A stretch of 64,000 nucleotides of DNA, taken from the NCBI RefSeq assembly GCF_902832885.1, contig NZ_CADFDK010000002.1, positions 248,001-312,000 on the forward strand, read 5' to 3'. Shown in pieces: positions 48,603 to 58,055 of this stretch. The stretch comes from Burkholderia seminalis DSM 23518. GTDB lineage: Bacteria; Pseudomonadota; Gammaproteobacteria; Burkholderiales; Burkholderiaceae. Positions within the stretch are counted from its first letter, which is position 1. Every line of letters starts with the position of its first letter. A program made the position numbers and the translations under genes. The notes under the pieces are model-generated. The model had not been told where the DNA came from. It was given only the letters and a program-made list of their open reading frames with translations, and ran no database searches.

Positions 48603-49487
48603 TCAGCGGGAGAGGACGGGCGGCGTGGCGGCGTCGTGCGATCCGGCGGAAGGGAACGCGGTGGTGGCCGAGCCCCACGCGGCGAGTTCGCGTTTGGTCC
48701 GCACGCCGAGCTTCGCGAACGCGCGCTTCACGTACGACTCGGCCGACGCGACGCGCACGCCGAGGATGCCGGCGGTCTCGGGCACGGTCTTGCCGGAGAG
48801 CAGGTGCTTGCAGGTTTCGTATTCGCGTTTCGACAGCTTCACGCCGTCGGCGGCGATGCGCGCGTCGAACTGCGCGAGCGGATGGATCTCCGGTGTCGGA
48901 TGCGCGACGCGCCGCACGGCGGTGGTCGACGCGTGGAGTTCGAGCAAGGGGAACAGCACGTCGCTGATGCCGCGGAAGCGGTTCATCTCGGCGAGCGTGA
49001 ACGGCGGCCGGTCGCGGCCGCGCTCCAGCGCGATCGAGTGCTGCGAATAGCGCGTGCCGCGCGCGAGCACGCATTCGTGGCCGATCTGCACGTCGTCGAA
49101 CAGCCGCTGACGGAATTCGCCGGGCGGGATCGCCGCGATGTCGCGCACGACGAGCATCGTGCCCGTCTTGCCGCGCAACCCGGCGAACAGCGGGTCGCTG
49201 TCGAGAAAGCGCTCGTAGTAGAGCGTCATCACGTCGGAGATTTCATGAGGGGCGGTGCCGATGCCGCTGCTGCCGATCCATTCGCATCGGTAGCCGGTGG
49301 GCATCGTGCCGTCGACGCGCGAGCGTTCGACGTGCGCGACGTCGAGCGGCACGACGTCGTTCAGCAGTTGCGTGAGGCGCGGCACGAAGTGAGGCGTGCC
49401 GACCGTCTCGATCAGCTCGCCCAGCGCCTTGAACGACACGTTGAAGCGGTCGTTGTCGCGGTGGAAGGGGTTCACGTTGAGCAGCAT
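48603..49487 (-). CDS. LuxR-family transcriptional regulator (copy 1)
   Basis: A 294-residue regulator with a C-terminal LuxR/FixJ helix-turn-helix (LSKREYETCKHLLSGKTVPE to YVKRAFAKLGVRTKREL). The ~200-residue N-terminal domain is unrelated to receiver or autoinducer domains that I recognise. It is a paralog of the gene at 53934-54764; both N-termini align through VGTPHFV/VGTPDFV. It is divergent from the cupin gene, whose promoter carries the shared element. ATG 49487 has GGGGAA upstream. Confidence 0.88.
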   Translation of the reverse strand: MLLNVNPFHRDNDRFNVSFKALGELIETVGTPHFVPRLTQLLNDVVPLDVAHVERSRVDGTMPTGYRCEWIGSSGIGTAPHEISDVMTLYYERFLDSDPLFAGLRGKTGTMLVVRDIAAIPPGEFRQRLFDDVQIGHECVLARGTRYSQHSIALERGRDRPPFTLAEMNRFRGISDVLFPLLELHASTTAVRRVAHPTPEIHPLAQFDARIAADGVKLSKREYETCKHLLSGKTVPETAGILGVRVASAESYVKRAFAKLGVRTKRELAAWGSATTAFPSAGSHDAATPPVLSR

Positions 49488-49599
49488 GCGGTTCCCCGGT
49501 GAAAAGCGGCGCGATTGTAGCGTCGGCAACGGAAAACGTCATTAGGGGGAAACACCGTCGGTTGTCCTGCCGACCTGCCCGCCCCCGCAAAACATCGCT

Positions 49600-49647
49600 T
49601 GTCCCCCCTGAAGGGGGGCATACCGGGGCAGTGTAAATGAGTAACTT
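49600..49647 (+). promoter_or_regulatory. regulon promoter element A (before the cupin gene)
   Basis: TGTCCCC, 13 bases, ATACCGG, 15 bases, TAACTT (-10). It contains a CCCCCC-TGAA-GGGGGG palindrome. The same layout and spacing recur at 54914-54961 and 56831-56878. The second half-site occupies the place of a -35 box, as at activator-dependent promoters. The start codon is at 49686. Confidence 0.75.
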
Positions 49648-49685
49648 TGTCTCTGCTTTTTTCAATCAAGAGACGAAAGATTCCG

Positions 49686-50030
49686 ATGACCAAACTGATC
49701 AAGGACATCCTGCCGCTGGGCGCAGGCGTGGGCGAATTCACGAAGCTCGACTTCGGGATGGACGAAAGCGACTGGCGCGCGGCCGAAGGCAAGAGCGGCA
49801 ACTACATCGTCGGCTGGTGGGAAGGCAAGGCCGGCTCGGTGGAGTTTCCGGAAACCGCGGCCGACGAAGCGGTGTGGCTCGTCGAGGGCCGGATCGCGCT
49901 GACCGACGTCGAAGGCAACCGCAAGGAATTCACGCCGGGCCAGGGTTACCTGCTGCCGGCCGGCTTCGCGGGCCGCTGGGAGACGATCGAGGACGCGAAG
50001 AAGTTCTACGTGCTGCTCGAACAGTCGTGA
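49686..50030 (+). CDS. cupin-domain protein
   Basis: A 114-residue single cupin of the EutQ/DUF861 type. The strand pattern and motif ADEAVWLVEGRIALTD plus FTPGQGYLLPAGFAGRWET fit, with few metal-binding histidines, so a catalytic role is doubtful. Such cupins often accompany FAD amine oxidases. It is the first gene behind regulon promoter A and is followed by a terminator-like hairpin before the oxidase gene, which may reduce read-through. Confidence 0.85.
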   Translation: MTKLIKDILPLGAGVGEFTKLDFGMDESDWRAAEGKSGNYIVGWWEGKAGSVEFPETAADEAVWLVEGRIALTDVEGNRKEFTPGQGYLLPAGFAGRWETIEDAKKFYVLLEQS

Positions 50031-50039
50031 TGTCCGAAG

Positions 50040-50095
50040 CCGCCGCCGGGGTGTCGTCGTCCGTGTGACGCGCATCCGGCGGCGGTTTCGTTTTT
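50040..50095 (+). terminator. terminator-like hairpin between cupin and oxidase genes
   Basis: CCGCCGCCGG at 50040 pairs with CCGGCGGCGG at 50076 (10 bp), followed by TTTCGTTTTT. The loop is 26 bases, long for an intrinsic terminator. It could set unequal expression within the operon. Confidence 0.5.
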
Positions 50096-50115
50096 CGCGT
50101 GTGATGGCTGGGATC

Positions 50116-51588
50116 ATGGAAATGGAAGTCAACGAAGCAAAACAGACCGCGCCGGTGCAGGCGCCGCGTGGCACGCCGGTCGCACCGGTCGCACCGGTCG
50201 CGCTGGGCGTCGAGGCGGCGCTCGCGAATACCAGGCTGTTCCCGTACTGGCTCGACAACCCGGCCGCGCCGGCCACCGAGCCGGAACTCGTCGGCGACGT
50301 GACGGCCGACCTGCTGATCGTCGGCGGCGGCTTCACGGGGCTGTGGTCGGCCGTGCAGGCGAAGGAACAGATGCCGCACCTGAACGTGGTGCTGATCGAG
50401 GCGGGCAAGGTCGCGCACGGCGCATCGGGCCGAGCGGGCGGGATCATCTCGACGTCGGTGATGCACGGGCTGCCGAATGCGGTGCGCGTGTTCCCGAACG
50501 ACATCGCGGAACTCGAGGCGTTCGGCCATCACAACCTCGATGGCTTCGAGGAAACGCTGAAGCGCTACGACATCGACGCCGACATCGAGTGGAACGGCGA
50601 GATGACGGTGGCGGTCGATCCCGAGCACCTTGCGCACCTGAAGGGCGACTACGACCTGCATCGCGAGTACGGCCACGACGTCGTGCTGCTGAACCGCGAG
50701 GAAACGCTCGAACAACTGAATTCGCCGCTGTTCGCGGGCGCGCTGTGGTCGCGCAACCGCAGCGGCATCGTGCATCCGGCGAAGCTCGCGTGGGGGCTGA
50801 AGCGCGCGGCGCTGTCGCTCGGCGTGAAACTGTACGAGCACACGCCGCTGACGACCGTGACCGACGAAGGCGGCACGGTGTTCGTGACGACGCCGAAGGG
50901 CAGCGTGCGCGCGCCGCGTGTCGTGTTCGGCAGCGGCACCGCGAAGGTCGGGATTCCGGACATCAACCGCCGCGTGATGCAGGTGCGCGATCACGTGCTC
51001 GCCACCGAGCCGCTGACCGACGAGCAGCTCGCGCGGATCGGCTGGAAGAATCGCCAGGGCGTGTACGACACGCGCACGCAGCTCAACTATTTCCGGCTGA
51101 CGAAGCACAACAACATCATCTTCGGCGGCCTCGTCAGCTATCACTTCGACGGCGATCCGGAGCCGCACCAGGACGGCCGGCGCGAAACGTACTACCGGCT
51201 CGCGGAAGCGTTCTACCGCACGTTCCCGCAACTGAGCGACGTGCGTTTCTCGCACGCATGGGGCGGCCCGATCGATTATTGCTCGCGCGGCTCGGTGTTC
51301 GCGAAACGCTATCTCGGCGGCAAGGCCGTGTTCGTCGCCGGCTATACGGGTTTCGGCGTCGCGGCGAGCCGGTTCGGCGCGTTCATGGGGCTGAACATCC
51401 TGTTCGACCGCGACAGCCCCGAGCGCAAGCTCGACATCGCGAACCAGAGCCCGAGCTACATCCCGCCGGAGCCGATGCGCTGGGTCGCCGCGAAGATCAC
51501 GTTCCACGCGTTCGACGGCGCGGATGCCGAAGGCGGCTGGAAGCGCGCGTGGATCAGCGGCCTCAAGGCGATGGGCTTCCCGATGTAA
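50116..51588 (+). CDS. FAD-dependent amine oxidoreductase (DAO/PuuB-like)
   Basis: A 490-residue flavoprotein of the D-amino-acid-oxidase fold. The FAD motif is DLLIVGGGFTGLWSAVQAKE, with the flavin-loop segment HGASGRAGGIISTS. The C-terminal GYTGFGVAASRFGA matches gamma-glutamylputrescine-oxidase-like proteins. It probably oxidises an amine to the aldehyde used by the dehydrogenase at 45975. Several in-frame ATGs (50104, 50116, 50122) exist without a strong ribosome site, so the start is approximate. Confidence 0.85.
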   Translation: MEMEVNEAKQTAPVQAPRGTPVAPVAPVALGVEAALANTRLFPYWLDNPAAPATEPELVGDVTADLLIVGGGFTGLWSAVQAKEQMPHLNVVLIEAGKVAHGASGRAGGIISTSVMHGLPNAVRVFPNDIAELEAFGHHNLDGFEETLKRYDIDADIEWNGEMTVAVDPEHLAHLKGDYDLHREYGHDVVLLNREETLEQLNSPLFAGALWSRNRSGIVHPAKLAWGLKRAALSLGVKLYEHTPLTTVTDEGGTVFVTTPKGSVRAPRVVFGSGTAKVGIPDINRRVMQVRDHVLATEPLTDEQLARIGWKNRQGVYDTRTQLNYFRLTKHNNIIFGGLVSYHFDGDPEPHQDGRRETYYRLAEAFYRTFPQLSDVRFSHAWGGPIDYCSRGSVFAKRYLGGKAVFVAGYTGFGVAASRFGAFMGLNILFDRDSPERKLDIANQSPSYIPPEPMRWVAAKITFHAFDGADAEGGWKRAWISGLKAMGFPM

Positions 51589-51594
51589 GCGACA

Positions 51595-51617
51595 CGGCGG
51601 CCCGGGCCGGGCCGCCG
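51595..51617 (+). other. intercistronic hairpin
   Basis: A perfect 10-bp stem, CGGCGGCCCG with CGGGCCGCCG, loop GGC, between the oxidase stop and the MFS start. No T-tract follows, so mRNA stabilisation or pausing is more likely than termination. Confidence 0.5.
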
Positions 51618-51675
51618 CCATATCCAACTCCCCCGAGGAGACGGTCCGCGCCGCGGACACGGAGAGAGACATCGC

Positions 51676-52866
51676 ATGAACGTTGTGAATCTGCAGGATG
51701 AAGCGCGGCAGGAAAGCGCGTTGTTCGTCGTCGTGATGCTGCTGCTCGGCATCCTCGGACCGACGGTTTTCCTCGGCCTGCCGGCGATCGTCGGACAGGT
51801 CGAGCGCCATTGGGGCTTCGGCGAAGCGGCGCTCGGGCTGTCGAGTTTCATCGAGGTGCTCGGCGAATCGACGGGTACGCTGCTCGTCGCGTTCGTGCTC
51901 GGCCGCCAGCCGGTCCGGCTCGTGCTCGCGGGCGCGGTGACGCTCGCGGCCGGCGCGAACCTCGGCACGCTCGCGACGCACGGGCTCGTCGCCTATTCGA
52001 CGCTGCAGTTCATCGCGGGCGTCGGCTCGGGCGGGCTGAACGGGATCGCGCTGCGCTACCTGTCGTATTCGCGCGCGCCGGAGCGCAATCTCGGGATCAT
52101 GCTGATGGGGCAGGTGATGTGGAGCATGGTGCTGCTTGCGTATGTCTTCCCGATGCTGAGCGGCATGTGGGGCGCGCGCGGCGTGTTCTGTTTCGTCGCG
52201 TGCGTGCTCGGCATGTTCGTGCTCGCGACACCGCTGTTCCGCCGCGGCGAGACGATGGCCGCGCCGACGCCGGTCGGGGTTGCCGGCCGCATCGACCGCC
52301 AGGGCGCGATGCTCGTGCTGTGCGCGCAGCTCGCGCTGTACGGCGGCGTGGGCGTCGTATGGACCTTCCTCGAGAAGATCGGCACCGATGCGGGCCTGAG
52401 CGGCAAGTCGGTGTCGCTCGTGCTCGGCATCGCGAACGTCGCGAGCCTCGTGATCTGCGCGGCGATGCCGAAGCTCGGTGCGGGCGCGGGCCTGCGTCGC
52501 TGGACGCTCGTGAACCTCGGCGGCTGCGCGGTCGCGGCCGTGCTGCTCGCGATGCCGGCATCGGTCGCGACGTTCACGCTCGGCGCGATCGTGTTCATCG
52601 GCTGCTGGACCGGCGGCGCGCTGCTGATCTACGCGACGATTCCGCAGTACGACCTGATCGGCCAGTCGGCCGCGCTGTCGCCGGGCTGCGTCGCGTTCGG
52701 CTATGGAGTGGGCTCGGTCGCGGGCGGGTCGCTGATCGAGCGCGCGGGCACGCAGTCGGCATTGATCGCGGCGATCGCGCTGTGCGCGGCGGCGTTCCTC
52801 TGCTACGGGCGGCTGCGGCCGGCCGTGTTCGGCATCGCGCGCCCGCTCGCGGCGGTATCGGAGTGA
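51676..52866 (+). CDS. MFS transporter
   Basis: A 396-residue major facilitator with about 12 helices, starting VVVMLLLGILGPTVFLGLPA. The helix 2-3 loop motif is weak. A central loop has PTPVGVAGRIDRQGAM. It lies 87 bases after the FAD oxidase gene and probably belongs to the same transcript. Direction and substrate are not evident; an amine or its oxidation product is likely from context. Confidence 0.85.
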   Translation: MNVVNLQDEARQESALFVVVMLLLGILGPTVFLGLPAIVGQVERHWGFGEAALGLSSFIEVLGESTGTLLVAFVLGRQPVRLVLAGAVTLAAGANLGTLATHGLVAYSTLQFIAGVGSGGLNGIALRYLSYSRAPERNLGIMLMGQVMWSMVLLAYVFPMLSGMWGARGVFCFVACVLGMFVLATPLFRRGETMAAPTPVGVAGRIDRQGAMLVLCAQLALYGGVGVVWTFLEKIGTDAGLSGKSVSLVLGIANVASLVICAAMPKLGAGAGLRRWTLVNLGGCAVAAVLLAMPASVATFTLGAIVFIGCWTGGALLIYATIPQYDLIGQSAALSPGCVAFGYGVGSVAGGSLIERAGTQSALIAAIALCAAAFLCYGRLRPAVFGIARPLAAVSE

Positions 52867-52997
52867 CAGGGTTGCGACGCGCGCCGCTGCCGATGGCGGC
52901 GCGCGTCCCGTTCGGTTCATCGGCGAAGGCGGCGGGCGGGGCGCGCGAGGCGCGCCGTGCCGGCCGGGCAACGCGCGTACGCGCAGCGGCTTGACGC

Positions 52998-53918
52998 ATG
53001 TTTTCGAATACCACCGATCTCGATCTCCGGCTCATCCGGGTCTTTCTGGCCGTCGTCGACGCACGCGGCATCACGGCTGCCGAGGCGTCGCTCGGCGTGC
53101 GGCAGTCGACCATCAGCACGCAGCTGTCGGCGCTCGAGGCGCGCGTCGGCTTCAAGCTGTGCGATCGCGGGCGCGGCGGCTTTCGGCTGACGTCGAAGGG
53201 CGAACGCTTCGCGGCCACGGCGCGTACGCTCGTCGCGGCGACCTCCGAATTCGTCGCGCGCGTGCGCGACATCGACCGCAAGCTGGTCGGCACGCTGTCG
53301 ATCGGCCTGATCGGCCAGGCGCCGCTCGTCGAGAACGCGCGGGTGGCCGACGCGATCGGCGCGTTCCGCCAGCGCGACCAGGCCGTCACGTTCTCGATGA
53401 AGGTCGCCTCGCCGCAGGAGCTCGAGGAAAGCCTCGTCAACAACCAGCTCGATCTCGCGATCGGCTATTTCTGGCATCGCGTGCCGGGCCTGCTCTATAC
53501 GCCGCTGTTCACCGAGCAGCAGGTGATCTATTGCGGGCGCGGGCATCCGCTGTTCCATGCGTCGCGGCCCGTGACGGCGGACGATCTGCAGCTTCACGAC
53601 TGGGTGTGGCGTACCTACCCGGTGCCGGAGGAGCAGTATCCGTTGCCGGAGCGCCGCGTGACCGCGAGCGCGGACAGCATCGAGGCCGCGACCATTCTGA
53701 TCCTGTCGGGCGGCCATCTCGGCTATCTGCCCGCGCACTACGCGGAGCCGTTCGAACAGCGCGGGCTCGTGAAGGCCGTCGGCCGTGCGACGTTCAGCTT
53801 CGACGTGCCGCTGCATCTCGCGATGAAGCGCAGCACGAGCGACAAGCCGATCGTCGACGCGTTCTGCGAGGACTTGCTGCGCGCCTTCAACATCAAGGCG
53901 GCCGCGCTGGCCGCGTAA
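52998..53918 (+). CDS. LysR-type transcriptional regulator
   Basis: A 306-residue LTTR with DNA-binding motif GITAAEASLGVRQSTISTQL. The effector domain has the LSIGLIGQAPLVENARVAD opening. It follows the MFS gene by 131 bases and converges on the LuxR copy 2 gene, their stops 15 bases apart. It may add a substrate-specific input to the polyamine/guanidino regulon. Confidence 0.88.
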   Translation: MFSNTTDLDLRLIRVFLAVVDARGITAAEASLGVRQSTISTQLSALEARVGFKLCDRGRGGFRLTSKGERFAATARTLVAATSEFVARVRDIDRKLVGTLSIGLIGQAPLVENARVADAIGAFRQRDQAVTFSMKVASPQELEESLVNNQLDLAIGYFWHRVPGLLYTPLFTEQQVIYCGRGHPLFHASRPVTADDLQLHDWVWRTYPVPEEQYPLPERRVTASADSIEAATILILSGGHLGYLPAHYAEPFEQRGLVKAVGRATFSFDVPLHLAMKRSTSDKPIVDAFCEDLLRAFNIKAAALAA

Positions 53919-53933
53919 ATCCGGGCCGCGCGC

Positions 53934-54764
53934 TCAGCAGTCGACGAGCGTCCAGTCGAACAGCTCGCGGCGCGTGCGCACGCCGAGCTTCGCGAACGCG
54001 CGCTTTACGTACGACTCGGCCGTCGACAGCTTCACGTCCAACTGCTGCGCGGCCTCGGGCACCGAGCGCCCGCACAGCATCAGCCGGCAGATCTCGTGCT
54101 CGCGGCGCGACAACTGCACGTCCTGGCGTTCGAGGCGCGCGTCGAAGCTCGCCTGCGATCCGACGTTCACCGATACCGTTGCCACGCGCCGCGCCGCGCA
54201 GGTACGCGCATGCAGCTCGAACATCGGGAACAGCAGATCGACCATCTGCCGGAAATGGAACAGCTCGTCCGTCGTGAACGCGGCCCGCCCGACTGCGCGC
54301 GCGAGCCCGAGCGCGTACTGCAGGTGCGCGGTGCCGTGCACGAGCAGGCATTCCTGCGCGATGCCGGGTTCGTCGAAGATGCGCCGGCGGAACTCGCCCT
54401 GCGCGATGCCGTCGACATGGCGCTGCACGAGCAGCGTGCCGGCCTTGCCGCGCAGCGGCGCGACCAGCGGGTCGGTCTGGCAATAGTGCTGGTAGTAAAT
54501 GTCCATCACGCGCAGCGTATCGGCCGCGACACGCAGGCTGCCGCTGCCGAGCCATTCGACGACGAAGCCCGACGTGCTGCCCGCGTCCGCGCGCCAGCGT
54601 TCGAGGTGCACGGCGTCGGCGTGGATGCTGTCGTTGACGAACGCGGTGACCGCGCCGACGAAATCCGGCGTGCCGACCGCACGCAGCGTCGCGCCGAGCG
54701 TGTCGGGGCGCACGCCGATCAGGTAGTGGCCGCGGGCGGCGGGGTCGGGCTGGAGCAGTCGCAT
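53934..54764 (-). CDS. LuxR-family transcriptional regulator (copy 2)
   Basis: A 276-residue paralog of the regulator at 48603-49487. The C-terminal helix-turn-helix runs LSRREHEICRLMLCGRSVPE to YVKRAFAKLGVRTRREL; the shared N-terminal domain has VGTPDFVGAVTAFVND. ATG 54764 aligns with the start of copy 1; a GTG at 54836 would lengthen it without a ribosome site. It is divergent from the amidohydrolase gene, with regulon element B between them, mirroring copy 1 and the cupin gene. Confidence 0.88.
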   Translation of the reverse strand: MRLLQPDPAARGHYLIGVRPDTLGATLRAVGTPDFVGAVTAFVNDSIHADAVHLERWRADAGSTSGFVVEWLGSGSLRVAADTLRVMDIYYQHYCQTDPLVAPLRGKAGTLLVQRHVDGIAQGEFRRRIFDEPGIAQECLLVHGTAHLQYALGLARAVGRAAFTTDELFHFRQMVDLLFPMFELHARTCAARRVATVSVNVGSQASFDARLERQDVQLSRREHEICRLMLCGRSVPEAAQQLDVKLSTAESYVKRAFAKLGVRTRRELFDWTLVDC

Positions 54765-54913
54765 GGTCGGGTGCAGGCGGTCAGGGGACAGCGCGACGTT
54801 ACGCGAACGCCGCGCGTGCGTCAGCCGGGTATTCACCGGTCAACCCCGCGGATTTCGCGCGTTGTCCCCAAAACGACGACAAGACCGGGTACGCGGTGGC
54901 GTGAATTCGCCGA

Positions 54914-54961
54914 AGCCCCCGCGGCGGGGGGGCATACCGGTGTGAATCGTCTGTCTATAGT
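54914..54961 (+). promoter_or_regulatory. regulon promoter element B (before the amidohydrolase gene)
   Basis: AGCCCCC, 13 bases, ATACCGG, 15 bases, TATAGT (-10). Same geometry as elements A and C; the C/G-run palindrome CCCCC-GCGGC-GGGGG lies inside. A looser copy (TGTCCCC, 12 bases, AGACCGG) occurs just upstream at 54863-54888. Start codon at 55002. Confidence 0.75.
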
Positions 54962-55001
54962 GAAAGCACTTCGAAAACCTGATGACCACCGAGGACAGGC
55001 A

Positions 55002-56726
55002 ATGCAGATTCAACCGACGCAGGTCGCCGCGACGCCGGCGGATTTCGTTCTGACCAACGCGAAGGTCTACACCGTCGATCCGCACCGGCCGTGGGCGCAG
55101 GCCGTTGCCGTGCGCGACGGCCGGATCGTCCACGTCGGCGACGTGGCGGCCGTGCAGGCGTACGTCGGTGCGCGGACGAAGGTCGTCGACGCGGCCGGCC
55201 GGCTCGTGCTGCCGGGCTTCGTCGAGTCGCACTGGCACTTCGAGACGACCGCGTTCGCGTTCCAGGCGTTCGTGAATCACGAGGATCCGCAGAAGGTGCT
55301 GGGCGCGCTGCGTGCCTACGTCGAATCGCATCCGGACGAGCCGGCGATCACCGGGATGGGCTGGGTGCAGGCGACGATCCCGCCAGCCATGCTGCGCAAG
55401 GAGACGCTCGACGCGATCTGCGCGGATCGCCCGGTGTGCCTGCTGTCGACGGATTTCCATTCGATGTGGGTGAACTCGAAGGCGCTGGAGATCGCCGGTA
55501 TCGACGCGTCGACGCCGCCCGTGCAGGCAGGCGCGAGCTGGTTCGAGAAGGACGCGGTGACGGGCGAGCCGACCGGCCTGATCGTCGACGGCGCCGCGTA
55601 TTCGTTGCTGATGCAGCGGATCAGCGCGGCCGGCCTGCTGCCGACCGGCATCGACCTGTACCTGAAATCGATTCCGCCGTGGCAGAAGAAGCTGTGCGCG
55701 GCCGGCGTGACGACCGTGTTCGATGCCGGCTTCTTCGACGCGAGCGGCGACCAGTCGCTGCTGTACGAGACGCTGCAGACGATGGAGCGCGCGGGCGACC
55801 TGAAGCTGCGCGTGGTGGGCAGCGTCGCGGTGATCGGCGAGATCGACGATCCGGTCGGCACGCTCGTCCGGTATCGCGAGCAGTACGATTCGCCGCTCGT
55901 GAAGGCGCGCGCGCTGAAGCTGTTCCTCGACGGCACCGAGGCGAACCACACCGCCTACCTGCTCGAACCGTACGCGGATCGCCCCGACACCTGCGGCGCG
56001 CCGACGATGCCGGCCGACACGTTCAACCGCTATCTGGTCGAAGCCGATCGCGCGAACGCGAACGTGATGGTCCATTGCGTCGGCGACGCGGCGGTGCGAA
56101 TGGCGCTCGACGGCTTCGACGAGGTCAACCGCGCGAACCCGCCGCGCGACCGCCGCCACGTGATCACGCACGCGTTTCTCACGCATCCGGACGACATCCC
56201 GCGCTTTCGCCGCGCGGGCGTGATGGCGAACACGCAGTTGCAGTGGGGCGTGGTCGACGCGTACACCGAGCAGCTGCGCGACCACTACGGCCACGCACGC
56301 TGGAGCAACATGTACAAGTTCCGCACGTTCCTCGACGCAGGCGTGACGGTGTCGATCGGCATGGACGGCCTCGCGTGCCAGTGCCGCTGCCAGCACAAGC
56401 CGCTCGAGCACATCGAGTCGGGCCACACGCGCCAGCTCGCGGGCGAACCCGATGCGCCGGTGTTTCCGGACATCGCCGAGCGCCTGAGCATTCCGCAGCT
56501 GATCGCCGCGTACACGATCCACGGCGCGTACCAGCTCGGGATGGAGCACGAGGTCGGCTCGCTGACACCCGGCAAGCGCGCGGATCTCGTCGTGCTCGAG
56601 AACGACCTGTTCGAGGTCGGCCAATACGACATCGGCCGCATCGACGTCGGGCTGACGATGATGGGCGGCCGCATCACGCACGTGGGCAACGATTTCGGGG
56701 CACGCACGGGTATCCAGGCGTCCTGA
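55002..56726 (+). CDS. YtcJ-like metal-dependent amidohydrolase
   Basis: A 574-residue amidohydrolase of family 3. The first metal motif is FVESHWHFE (His-X-His), with further ligand regions in MVHCVGDAAVR and HVITHAF. The C-terminal GSLTPGKRADLVVLEND is the standard end of the composite beta domain. It hydrolyses an amide or related bond. No signal peptide. GAGGAC lies before the ATG; it stands behind regulon element B and is probably cotranscribed into the PotF gene region. Confidence 0.88.
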   Translation: MQIQPTQVAATPADFVLTNAKVYTVDPHRPWAQAVAVRDGRIVHVGDVAAVQAYVGARTKVVDAAGRLVLPGFVESHWHFETTAFAFQAFVNHEDPQKVLGALRAYVESHPDEPAITGMGWVQATIPPAMLRKETLDAICADRPVCLLSTDFHSMWVNSKALEIAGIDASTPPVQAGASWFEKDAVTGEPTGLIVDGAAYSLLMQRISAAGLLPTGIDLYLKSIPPWQKKLCAAGVTTVFDAGFFDASGDQSLLYETLQTMERAGDLKLRVVGSVAVIGEIDDPVGTLVRYREQYDSPLVKARALKLFLDGTEANHTAYLLEPYADRPDTCGAPTMPADTFNRYLVEADRANANVMVHCVGDAAVRMALDGFDEVNRANPPRDRRHVITHAFLTHPDDIPRFRRAGVMANTQLQWGVVDAYTEQLRDHYGHARWSNMYKFRTFLDAGVTVSIGMDGLACQCRCQHKPLEHIESGHTRQLAGEPDAPVFPDIAERLSIPQLIAAYTIHGAYQLGMEHEVGSLTPGKRADLVVLENDLFEVGQYDIGRIDVGLTMMGGRITHVGNDFGARTGIQAS

Positions 56727-56830
56727 CCGGGCATCCCGGCTGACGACGCGGTGACGCCGGCTTTCAGGCGGCTTCCGTTTTCGCGGGCCGCCGCATCCCG
56801 GCCGGAACCGGATGCGCCGATTGTGACGCG

Positions 56831-56878
56831 TGTCCCCCTATTGGCAGGGCAGACCGGCCAATTTCCTCTGGCTACATT
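56831..56878 (+). promoter_or_regulatory. regulon promoter element C (before the polyamine-binding protein gene)
   Basis: TGTCCCC, 13 bases, AGACCGG, 15 bases, TACATT (-10). Exact spacing match with elements A and B; the internal palindrome is weaker (CCCCTATTGGCAGGG). Start codon at 56940, 62 bases past the -10. Confidence 0.75.
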
Positions 56879-56939
56879 TTCCCGGACCGAAGCAACCACC
56901 GCTCGCCGGGAGCGGATCACGATACCGACGGAGGAAAAC

Positions 56940-58055
56940 ATGGCAGGGGAGTGGAAACGGCATCTGGGGACGGCATGCGCGGCGCTCGCGCTGGGCGGGT
57001 TCGCGTGGGCCGGCACGCCCGTCGCGCACGCGGCGGACGTCGTCAACGTGTACAACTGGGGCAACTCGATCGGCAAGGCGACGATCGCGAACTTCGAGAA
57101 GGCGACCGGCATCAAGGTCGTCTACCAGGAGTTCGATTCGAACGAGACGCTGCAGGCGAAGCTGCTGTCGGGCACGTCGGGCTACGACGTCGTCGTGCCG
57201 TCCGACATCTTCTGGGCGCGGCAGCTGCAGGCCGGCATCTACCGCAAGATCGACCGGAGCCAGGTGCCGAACTACGGGCTGCTCGATCCGGAAATCATGA
57301 AGGTGCTGGCGAAGGACGATCCGGGCAACCAGTTCGGCATTCCGTGGACGTGGGGCACCGACGGGCTCGGGATGAACGTCGAGAAGGTGAAGGCCGCGCT
57401 CGGCAACGATGCGCCGCTCGACAGCTGGTCGCTGCTGTTCGATCCGAAGGTCGTGCAGAAGCTGAAGCACTGCGGCGTGTCGGTGCTCGATTCGCCGGTC
57501 GATGCGTTCGGGATGGCGTTCGTGTACCTGAAGAAGGATCCGAACACGACGAACCCGGCCGACTACCAGGCCGCCTATGAGCTGCTGAAGACGGTGCGGC
57601 CGTACATCACGCAGTTCAACTCGAGCAGCTACATCAACGATCTTGCGGGCGGCGACATCTGCCTCGCGCTCGGCTGGTCGGGCGACGTGAACTCCGCGCG
57701 GATCGCGGCCGCTTCCGCGAAGAAGTCGTATCACATCAAGTACGTGATTCCGACCGAGGGCAGCGCGATGTGGTTCGACATGATGGCGATTCCGAAGGAT
57801 GCGCCGCATCCGGACGCCGCACTGAAGTTCGTGAACTTCGTGCTGTCGGAGCAGGAGAGCGCGAACCTGACCAACGACACGTCGTATCCGTCGGCCGTGC
57901 CGTCGTCGAGGCATCTCGTGCGCGCCGAAGTGACGAGCGACCCGGCCGTGTTCCCGCCCGCCGACGTGATCCGCCGGCTGAGCCTCAGCAAGCCGGTTCC
58001 GCCCGAGCTGATGCGTCTGCAGAACCGTCTCTGGACGAAGCTGAAGACCGAGTAA
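56940..58055 (+). CDS. polyamine ABC transporter substrate-binding protein (PotF-like)
   Basis: A 371-residue periplasmic binding protein with signal peptide (cleavage after AHA, about residue 31). The mature start VVNVYNWGNSIGKATIANFE and motifs such as SGYDVVVPSDIFWARQLQAG and AMWFDMMAIPKDAPHP are typical of PotF/SpuD putrescine- or spermidine-binding proteins. No permease or ATPase follows, so it may pair with a transporter elsewhere. GAGGAAAAC precedes the ATG. Alternative ligands: guanidinobutyrate or agmatine. Confidence 0.9.
   Translation: MAGEWKRHLGTACAALALGGFAWAGTPVAHAADVVNVYNWGNSIGKATIANFEKATGIKVVYQEFDSNETLQAKLLSGTSGYDVVVPSDIFWARQLQAGIYRKIDRSQVPNYGLLDPEIMKVLAKDDPGNQFGIPWTWGTDGLGMNVEKVKAALGNDAPLDSWSLLFDPKVVQKLKHCGVSVLDSPVDAFGMAFVYLKKDPNTTNPADYQAAYELLKTVRPYITQFNSSSYINDLAGGDICLALGWSGDVNSARIAAASAKKSYHIKYVIPTEGSAMWFDMMAIPKDAPHPDAALKFVNFVLSEQESANLTNDTSYPSAVPSSRHLVRAEVTSDPAVFPPADVIRRLSLSKPVPPELMRLQNRLWTKLKTE

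What the first reader, a model, noticed from the sequence alone, without database searches (positions are those of the whole stretch)
49600..56878. A shared bipartite promoter element with invariant spacing at three promoters of the guanidino/polyamine block
Seen directly: 49600, 54914 and 56831 each start a layout of WGYCCCC, exactly 13 bases, AKACCGG, exactly 15 bases, and a -10-like TANNNT. The three genes behind them (cupin, amidohydrolase, PotF-like) belong to one functional block. Two of the elements lie between a LuxR-type gene and its divergent neighbour. The second half-site replaces the -35 box, the geometry of an activator-dependent promoter. A looser fourth copy with a 12-base gap is at 54863-54888, and a CCCCCTAAT half-site precedes LuxR copy 1. 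Inference: the two paralogous LuxR-type proteins recognise this element and define a small regulon.
Basis: partly seen in the sequence, partly recalled or inferred. Interest (0 to 1): 0.8.

Follow-up and report, generated by a model that had tools for sequence, protein, structure and literature searches.

The report
LuxR-type operator of polyamine-gene promoters
Three metabolic gene promoters in this Burkholderia genome share an almost identical on-switch sequence that, judging from many related bacteria, is the landing site of the LuxR-type regulator proteins encoded next door.

Summary
The three copies are real: the full layout occurs 3 times in the window, 0 in 100 shuffles; the two-box motif occurs exactly 3 times in the 8-Mb genome, all here. 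The parsing needs correcting. The unit is one 21-bp dyad, TGYCCCC-N7-GGGGGCA (right arm degenerate in the PotF copy), overlapping a poor -35 (CAKACC), then 17 bp and TANNNT; its centre is near -44, as in class II LuxR-type promoters. In 398 family genomes the relaxed dyad-promoter pattern gives 102 sites in 70 genomes, none in the reversed control; 67 of the 70 encode a LuxR1 homologue, and 71 of 102 sites lie within 400 nt of one. Loci with an intact cupin gene keep the element in 40 of 40, those without in 1 of 13. Of ten distant LuxR-PotF pairs found by protein alone, nine have the dyad and six the exact -10 distance. Best reading: a small regulon activated by GerE/LuxR-type proteins lacking a recognisable AHL-binding domain. 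Binding, ligand, start sites and each paralogue's share are untested. Keyword searches listed no paper on it.

The parts
49600..49620 (+). dyad operator 1 (TGTCCCCCCTGAAGGGGGGCA), centre 49610, before the cupin-DAO-MFS-LysR gene row
   Evidence: strict element in 40 of 40 loci with intact cupin
49619..49624 (+). weak -35 CATACC, 17 bp before the -10
49642..49647 (+). -10 TAACTT
54914..54934 (+). dyad operator 2 (AGCCCCCGCGGCGGGGGGGCA) before the amidohydrolase gene
   Evidence: element in 25 of 26 loci
54933..54938 (+). weak -35 CATACC
54956..54961 (+). -10 TATAGT, the same in 25 of 25 loci with the element
56831..56851 (+). dyad operator 3 (TGTCCCCCTATTGGCAGGGCA) before the PotF-like gene
   Evidence: element in 26 of 27 loci; the 27th (L098) has a 20-bp version
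56850..56855 (+). weak -35 CAGACC
56873..56878 (+). -10 TACATT
54863..54881 (.). upstream auxiliary dyad TGTCCCC..GACA, about 52 bp (5 helical turns) before dyad 2; possible LuxR site
   Evidence: present in 22 of 26 loci, at 52.5 bp in 20 and 53.5 in 2
49514..49552 (-). predicted LuxR1 promoter: CCCCCT half-site abutting ATGACG-N17-TACAAT
   Evidence: only sigma-70-like hit in 49400-57000; 0.6 expected in shuffles
48603..49484 (-). LuxR1 gene (GerE domain, 293 aa), divergent from cupin
53934..54764 (-). LuxR2 gene (GerE domain, 276 aa), divergent from amidohydrolase; 45% identical to LuxR1
49686..50030 (+). cupin gene, first gene behind operator 1
   Evidence: Cupin_3
50104..51588 (+). FAD-dependent oxidase (DAO)
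55002..56726 (+). amidohydrolase gene behind operator 2
   Evidence: Amidohydro_3
56940..58055 (+). PotF-like solute-binding protein gene behind operator 3
   Evidence: SBP_bac_8

Best explanation
The element is the operator of GerE/LuxR-type activators encoded beside it. A homodimer of LuxR1 (and probably LuxR2) binds the dyad TGYCCCC-N7-GGGGGCA, one subunit per arm; the right subunit sits against a -35 (CAKACC) too poor for sigma-70 alone and contacts RNA polymerase (class II geometry, dyad centre near -44), switching on the cupin/FAD-oxidase row, the amidohydrolase gene and the PotF-like gene. Shown here: the element, its symmetry, its fixed distance to the -10, its conservation and its tight linkage to this LuxR subfamily. 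Inferred: binding, activation rather than repression, response to a polyamine or guanidino compound, and the division of labour between the paralogues.
For: Full layout 3 vs 0 in 100 shuffles; only 3 exact matches genome-wide. Dyad-promoter pattern: 102 sites in 70 of 398 family genomes, no control match in any listed row; LuxR1 homologue in 87 of 398, both in 67; 71 of 102 sites within 400 nt of a LuxR homologue, 69 of these divergent, 24 more at about 2.1 kb (the PotF site). Strict element kept in 40 of 40 loci with cupin, 1 of 13 where cupin is lost or truncated. Named set: 58 of 60 cupin loci (regex there also allows CANNNT as -10); the other two (L237, L240) differ by one base. Ten distant LuxR-PotF pairs found by protein only: dyad in 9 (two of them one base off), TANNNT exactly 21 nt after the right arm in 6 (L098, L157, L184, L185, L186, L252). 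Arms covary within sites (permutation p 0.00045, 22 site types). LuxR1 and LuxR2 identical over AESYVKRAFAKLGVRT. None of the three promoters scores as sigma-70-like. TraR class II boxes lie about 45 nt upstream and overlap the -35 (PMC3907764, passages).
Against: No binding or expression data. Open, intact-looking LuxR1 genes persist in genomes where the block is gone and no strict site remains, so LuxR1 may have other targets there or be decaying; one cupin-less locus (L079) still has the strict element. Some LuxR homologues have no such site nearby: L093 (52%), L094-L097 and L258-L259 (about 60% to LuxR2), L181 (LuxR match starts at residue 32 of the query), L183. L103-L105 have the dyad but no TANNNT at 21 nt. 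Seven of 102 pattern sites are not placed as described. Genomes are related, so the counts are not independent.
Confidence: 0.85

Rival explanations
1. The LysR-type protein encoded in the same block (52998-53918), not LuxR, binds the element.
For: The LysR gene lies in the block and is found with cupin in most loci.
Against: Elements occur beside LuxR-amidohydrolase-MFS and LuxR-PotF pairs with no such LysR homologue detected in the stretch held (L138, L142, L143, L146, L147; L184-L186; L253, L256).
Confidence: 0.06
2. The G/C dyad is an RNA hairpin (attenuator or terminator) or a DNA secondary structure rather than a protein site.
For: Copies 1 and 2 are C-run/G-run inverted repeats, 16 of 21 positions self-complementary.
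Against: The dyads lie upstream of the conserved -10 boxes and outside the predicted LuxR1 transcript; copy 3 is only 12 of 21 self-complementary yet strongly conserved; the distance to the -10 is fixed in most sites while dyad length varies 19-22.
Confidence: 0.03
3. AKACCGG and TANNNT are the -35 and -10 of an alternative sigma factor; the C-run is incidental.
For: CAKACC-N17-TANNNT is nearly invariant in the genus.
Against: The C/G arms are as conserved as the -35 at the cupin site; beyond AKACC the bases vary at the amidohydrolase and other sites; the pattern tracks the LuxR genes. No sigma-factor gene was looked for.
Confidence: 0.04
4. LuxR proteins bind as repressors, or LuxR1 and LuxR2 act antagonistically on shared sites.
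For: A site over the -35 could also block polymerase; the two proteins share the stretch where the recognition helix should lie.
Against: The -35 boxes are poor and none of the three promoters scores as sigma-70-like, which fits need of an activator; TraR class II precedent.
Confidence: 0.12

Closest known systems
TraR class II promoters (tra boxes) of Agrobacterium (PMC3907764, passages seen)
   Same: LuxR-type regulator, dyad about 45 nt upstream of the start, partly overlapping the -35
   Different: Other sequence and length (18 bp against 19-22 here); TraR is an AHL receptor, no AHL-binding domain is recognisable here
LuxR solos of Proteobacteria (PMC10134790, listing and abstract start only)
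   Same: LuxR-type regulator with no luxI partner noted here (not searched for)
   Different: Solos are defined as quorum-sensing-type receptors; 0 of 38 homologues here match an autoinducer-binding Pfam model
NarL/GerE/DesR-type GerE proteins in the Protein Data Bank
   Same: Best sequence matches of the C-terminal domain
   Different: The matches cover only the C-terminal part; no receiver domain was found by Pfam

Membership tests
GerE/LuxR-type DNA-binding proteins | PF00196 domain at the C-terminus | tested here: met
   38 of 38 homologues match at E up to 0.1; LuxR1 24.8 and LuxR2 35.5 bits, cut-off 23.5
AHL-type LuxR solo | N-terminal autoinducer-binding domain (Pfam) | tested here: not met
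   0 of 38 members match such a model at E up to 0.1; a remote fold relation is not excluded, the structure job did not return
Class II LuxR-type activated promoter | dyad overlapping the -35, centre about -42 to -45 | tested here: met
   centre 32 bp before the first base of the -10 at all three, about -44 if that base is -12
Class II LuxR-type activated promoter | regulator binds and activates | not testable with these tools
   needs footprint and reporter assay
Class II LuxR-type activated promoter | mapped start site a few nt after the -10 | not testable with these tools
   a TSS map of B. cenocepacia exists (PMC4603805, passages seen); its supplementary tables are out of reach here
Regulon of one operator | operator conserved before orthologous genes across species | tested here: met
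   cupin 40 of 40, amidohydrolase 25 of 26, PotF 26 of 27 loci

The most novel reading that the evidence does not exclude
A widespread subfamily of GerE/LuxR-type regulators of Burkholderiales with an undescribed, non-AHL sensor domain reads a polyamine or guanidino signal and owns a portable promoter module (dyad, CAKAC, about 17 bp, TANNNT) that travels with PotF, amidohydrolase, cupin/oxidase or agmatinase genes; two paralogues with the same putative recognition helix share one operator and integrate two signals, helped at the amidohydrolase promoter by a second dyad five helical turns upstream.
Probability: 0.3. Interest if true: 0.62.

Novelty: new member of a known kind. Interest (0 to 1): 0.5.

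Why it matters
It assigns an operator, and therefore a target list, to a LuxR-type subfamily for which my keyword searches listed no described function, and links it to amine metabolism rather than quorum sensing. The operator is so specific that the regulon can be read from sequence in related genomes, natural gene losses already serve as controls, and a two-plasmid reporter in a laboratory strain would test it directly.

Tried and rejected
In one search the sites in G127 and G538 (genus g12, genomes of about 1.7-1.8 Mb) come without a LuxR1 homologue and without block genes in the stretches held (L172; L154); I treat both as probable chance or another system. G011:C1 (L156) likewise had no block gene.

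Led nowhere: literature searches showed no paper on this operator or these LuxR proteins among the rows listed; only titles and abstract starts were seen. Structure prediction of LuxR1 was queued and not finished, so no fold comparison was made. Which paralogue binds which site could not be decided.
Full report
OBSERVATION. The complete 48-base layout has 3 matches in the window and 0 in 100 dinucleotide shuffles. In the whole genome of 7.97 Mb the motif without the -10 has 3 exact matches, all in this block, and 8 one-mismatch matches; the reversed pattern gave 3 in the same search. None of the 8 has TANNNT 15 bases on. With 3 mismatches allowed the motif is at chance level in the window, so only close copies count.

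ANATOMY. The copies are dyads. Copy 1 is TGTCCCCCCTGAAGGGGGGCA, copy 2 AGCCCCCGCGGCGGGGGGGCA, copy 3 TGTCCCCCTATTGGCAGGGCA; 16, 16 and 12 of 21 positions are self-complementary. AKACCGG is the last base of the right arm plus the -35 region: CAKACC, then 17 bp, then TANNNT. In all three the dyad centre is 32 bp before the first base of the -10, about -44 if that base is -12. A sigma-70 scan of 49400-57000 finds only a candidate for LuxR1 (ATGACG-N17-TACAAT, minus strand; 0.6 expected in shuffles), not these three, which fits promoters that need an activator. In B. cenocepacia the mapped -10 consensus is TAnAAT and the -35 is weak, TTGCC (PMC4603805, passages).

GENES. By Pfam: arginase family, GerE (LuxR1), Cupin_3, FAD oxidase, MFS, LysR, GerE (LuxR2), Amidohydro_3, solute-binding protein, DUF3138/BBP2. 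LuxR1 and LuxR2 are 45% identical and identical over AESYVKRAFAKLGVRT, where the recognition helix of GerE proteins should lie (helix position recalled, not from a structure).

CONSERVATION IN THE GENUS. Of 65 genomes, 53 have a LuxR1 homologue; I fetched the best locus of 51 of the 52 other genomes (G236 left out, contig end) and seven further loci. Among 53 loci with LuxR1 at 60% identity or more (52 fetched plus the window), the 40 with an intact cupin gene all keep the strict element; of 13 with cupin lost or truncated, 1 does (L079). I looked at the genes around LuxR1 in eight of those 13: the cupin-oxidase block is gone, with an MFS fragment left in L053 and a LysR fragment in L087, and none of the eight has the strict element. 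In L087 the dyad is intact and the -10 is changed; L053 has one change in the dyad region and one in the -10; the others are decayed or absent. So selection on the element follows the target gene. The amidohydrolase element is in 25 of 26 loci (the exception, L092, has the gene directly behind cupin) and the PotF element in 26 of 27 (the exception, L098, has a 20-bp variant). GGGGCATACC at 49615-49624 is identical in 36 of 36 aligned loci. In 14 of the 40 cupin loci LuxR2, amidohydrolase and PotF are absent, each of those 14 genomes shows only one LuxR1/2 homologue at E 1e-30, and the cupin element is kept, so LuxR1 suffices there. Where amidohydrolase or PotF is present beside cupin, LuxR2 is present too, except in L092.

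FAMILY-WIDE TEST. The relaxed pattern TGYCC-N10-12-GGRCAKACC-N17-TANNNT gives 102 sites in 70 of 398 family genomes and no reversed-control match in any listed row. A separate protein search of a family set of 398 (the same handles recur) finds LuxR1 homologues at E 1e-30 or better in 87; 67 genomes have both (Fisher p is tiny, but the genomes are related and I do not lean on it). Of 102 sites, 71 lie within 400 nt of a LuxR homologue, 69 of those divergent; 24 are PotF sites about 2.1 kb from LuxR2; 7 are others: G209:C15 (5 kb; the PotF site of L092), G544:C41 (15 kb), G676 (a 29% LuxR homologue beside it, below the cut-off), and G011:C1, G209:C1, G127, G538, which have none close. Of the 20 genomes with LuxR but no strict site, 11 are the cupin-less genomes of the genus; the other nine I fetched: five have the cupin element with one changed letter (G055, G554, G633, G645, G664), two have the dyad before PotF (G075, G171), and two do not fit simply: G013 has none, G686 has one LuxR with a short match and no site and one LuxR-agmatinase locus with a one-substitution element. 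In named genomes 58 of 60 loci with cupin have the element (the -10 there allowed as TANNNT or CANNNT); the other two differ by one base. Named genera are Burkholderia, Paraburkholderia and Caballeronia; that the unnamed genera g1, g20 and g10 are these three I infer from equal contig lengths.

INDEPENDENT LINK TO LuxR. Ten loci came in because they encode a distant LuxR homologue and turned out to have PotF beside it: L098, L103, L104, L105, L157 (own genome, contig C3), L181, L184, L185, L186, L252. The dyad lies in front of PotF in nine (L157 and L252 one base off; not L181), and TANNNT stands exactly 21 nt after the right arm, as in the window, in six (L098, L157, L184, L185, L186, L252), not in L103-L105. 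The other distant LuxR loci found by protein and lacking PotF did less well: L093-L097, L183, L258 and L259 have no element; L182 has a one-substitution element before an agmatinase-like gene; L253, L254 and L256, with amidohydrolase, have it. The reversed control of the one-substitution search gave 0 hits in 1.47 Mb. Dyad length varies from 19 to 22 while the right arm keeps its distance to the -10, as expected if the promoter-proximal subunit touches polymerase. Across 22 site types the two arms match each other better than arms of other sites (7.0 against 6.24 of 9, permutation p 0.00045, mainly the Y/R position 3; site types are related, so p is approximate).

COUNTER-EVIDENCE. LuxR-like loci without the element are listed above; near L093 a different inverted repeat, CTGTTCC..GGAACAG, lies upstream. 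Orphan LuxR1 genes remain open without any strict site, which the model does not explain except as relics or regulators of something else. Nothing here measures binding or expression.

ADDITIONAL FEATURES. Before the amidohydrolase gene a second dyad, TGTCCCCAAAACGAYGACA in most loci (54863-54881), is present in 22 of 26 loci, 52.5 bp from the main dyad in 20 and 53.5 in 2, about five helical turns. It may serve cooperative binding or the LuxR2 promoter. A largely conserved CCCCCT half-site abuts the LuxR1 -35, which suggests autoregulation. Both are inference.

COMPARISON. The geometry is that of TraR class II promoters, where the box lies about 45 nt upstream and partly overlaps the -35 (PMC3907764, passages). 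The proteins share the GerE domain (38 of 38) but none of the 38 matches an autoinducer-binding model, and sequence search against solved structures finds only the C-terminal domain. They work like class II LuxR-type activators; they are not shown to be AHL receptors. Keyword searches listed no paper on this operator; the lists were capped at 10 or 20 rows and most subscription papers are not in that library.

VERDICT. New regulator-operator pair of a familiar kind.

Noticed in passing
window 54863-54881: Second conserved dyad five helical turns upstream of the amidohydrolase operator, between LuxR2 and amidohydrolase.
   Followed up: partly
window 49514-49552 (minus strand): Predicted LuxR1 promoter with a largely conserved CCCCCT half-site directly before its -35, suggesting autoregulation.
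   Followed up: partly
L157:7094-9326 (own genome, contig C3): A third LuxR-PotF pair in the same genome with a weak dyad and CAGACA-N17-TACAGT.
   Followed up: partly
L064, L066, L075, L080, L082, L084, L085: Open orphan LuxR1 genes where the catabolic block is gone and the operator has decayed or is absent.
   Followed up: partly
L182:1567-2606: Distant LuxR (34%) beside an agmatinase-like gene (38%) with a one-substitution version of the element in front of it.
   Followed up: partly
L138, L139, L141, L142 (G544): One genome of the Paraburkholderia group with four LuxR paralogues, each with its own dyad variant; useful for matching protein changes to operator changes.
   Followed up: no
L093 upstream of the LuxR1-like gene: A LuxR1-like gene (52%) with a different inverted repeat, CTGTTCCTCGCAGGAACAG, possibly a changed specificity.
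   Followed up: no
L154:6972-7018 and L172 (site in G127): TGCCCAC..ATGGGCATACC elements in two small g12 genomes without a LuxR1 homologue or block genes nearby; may be another system or chance.
   Followed up: partly
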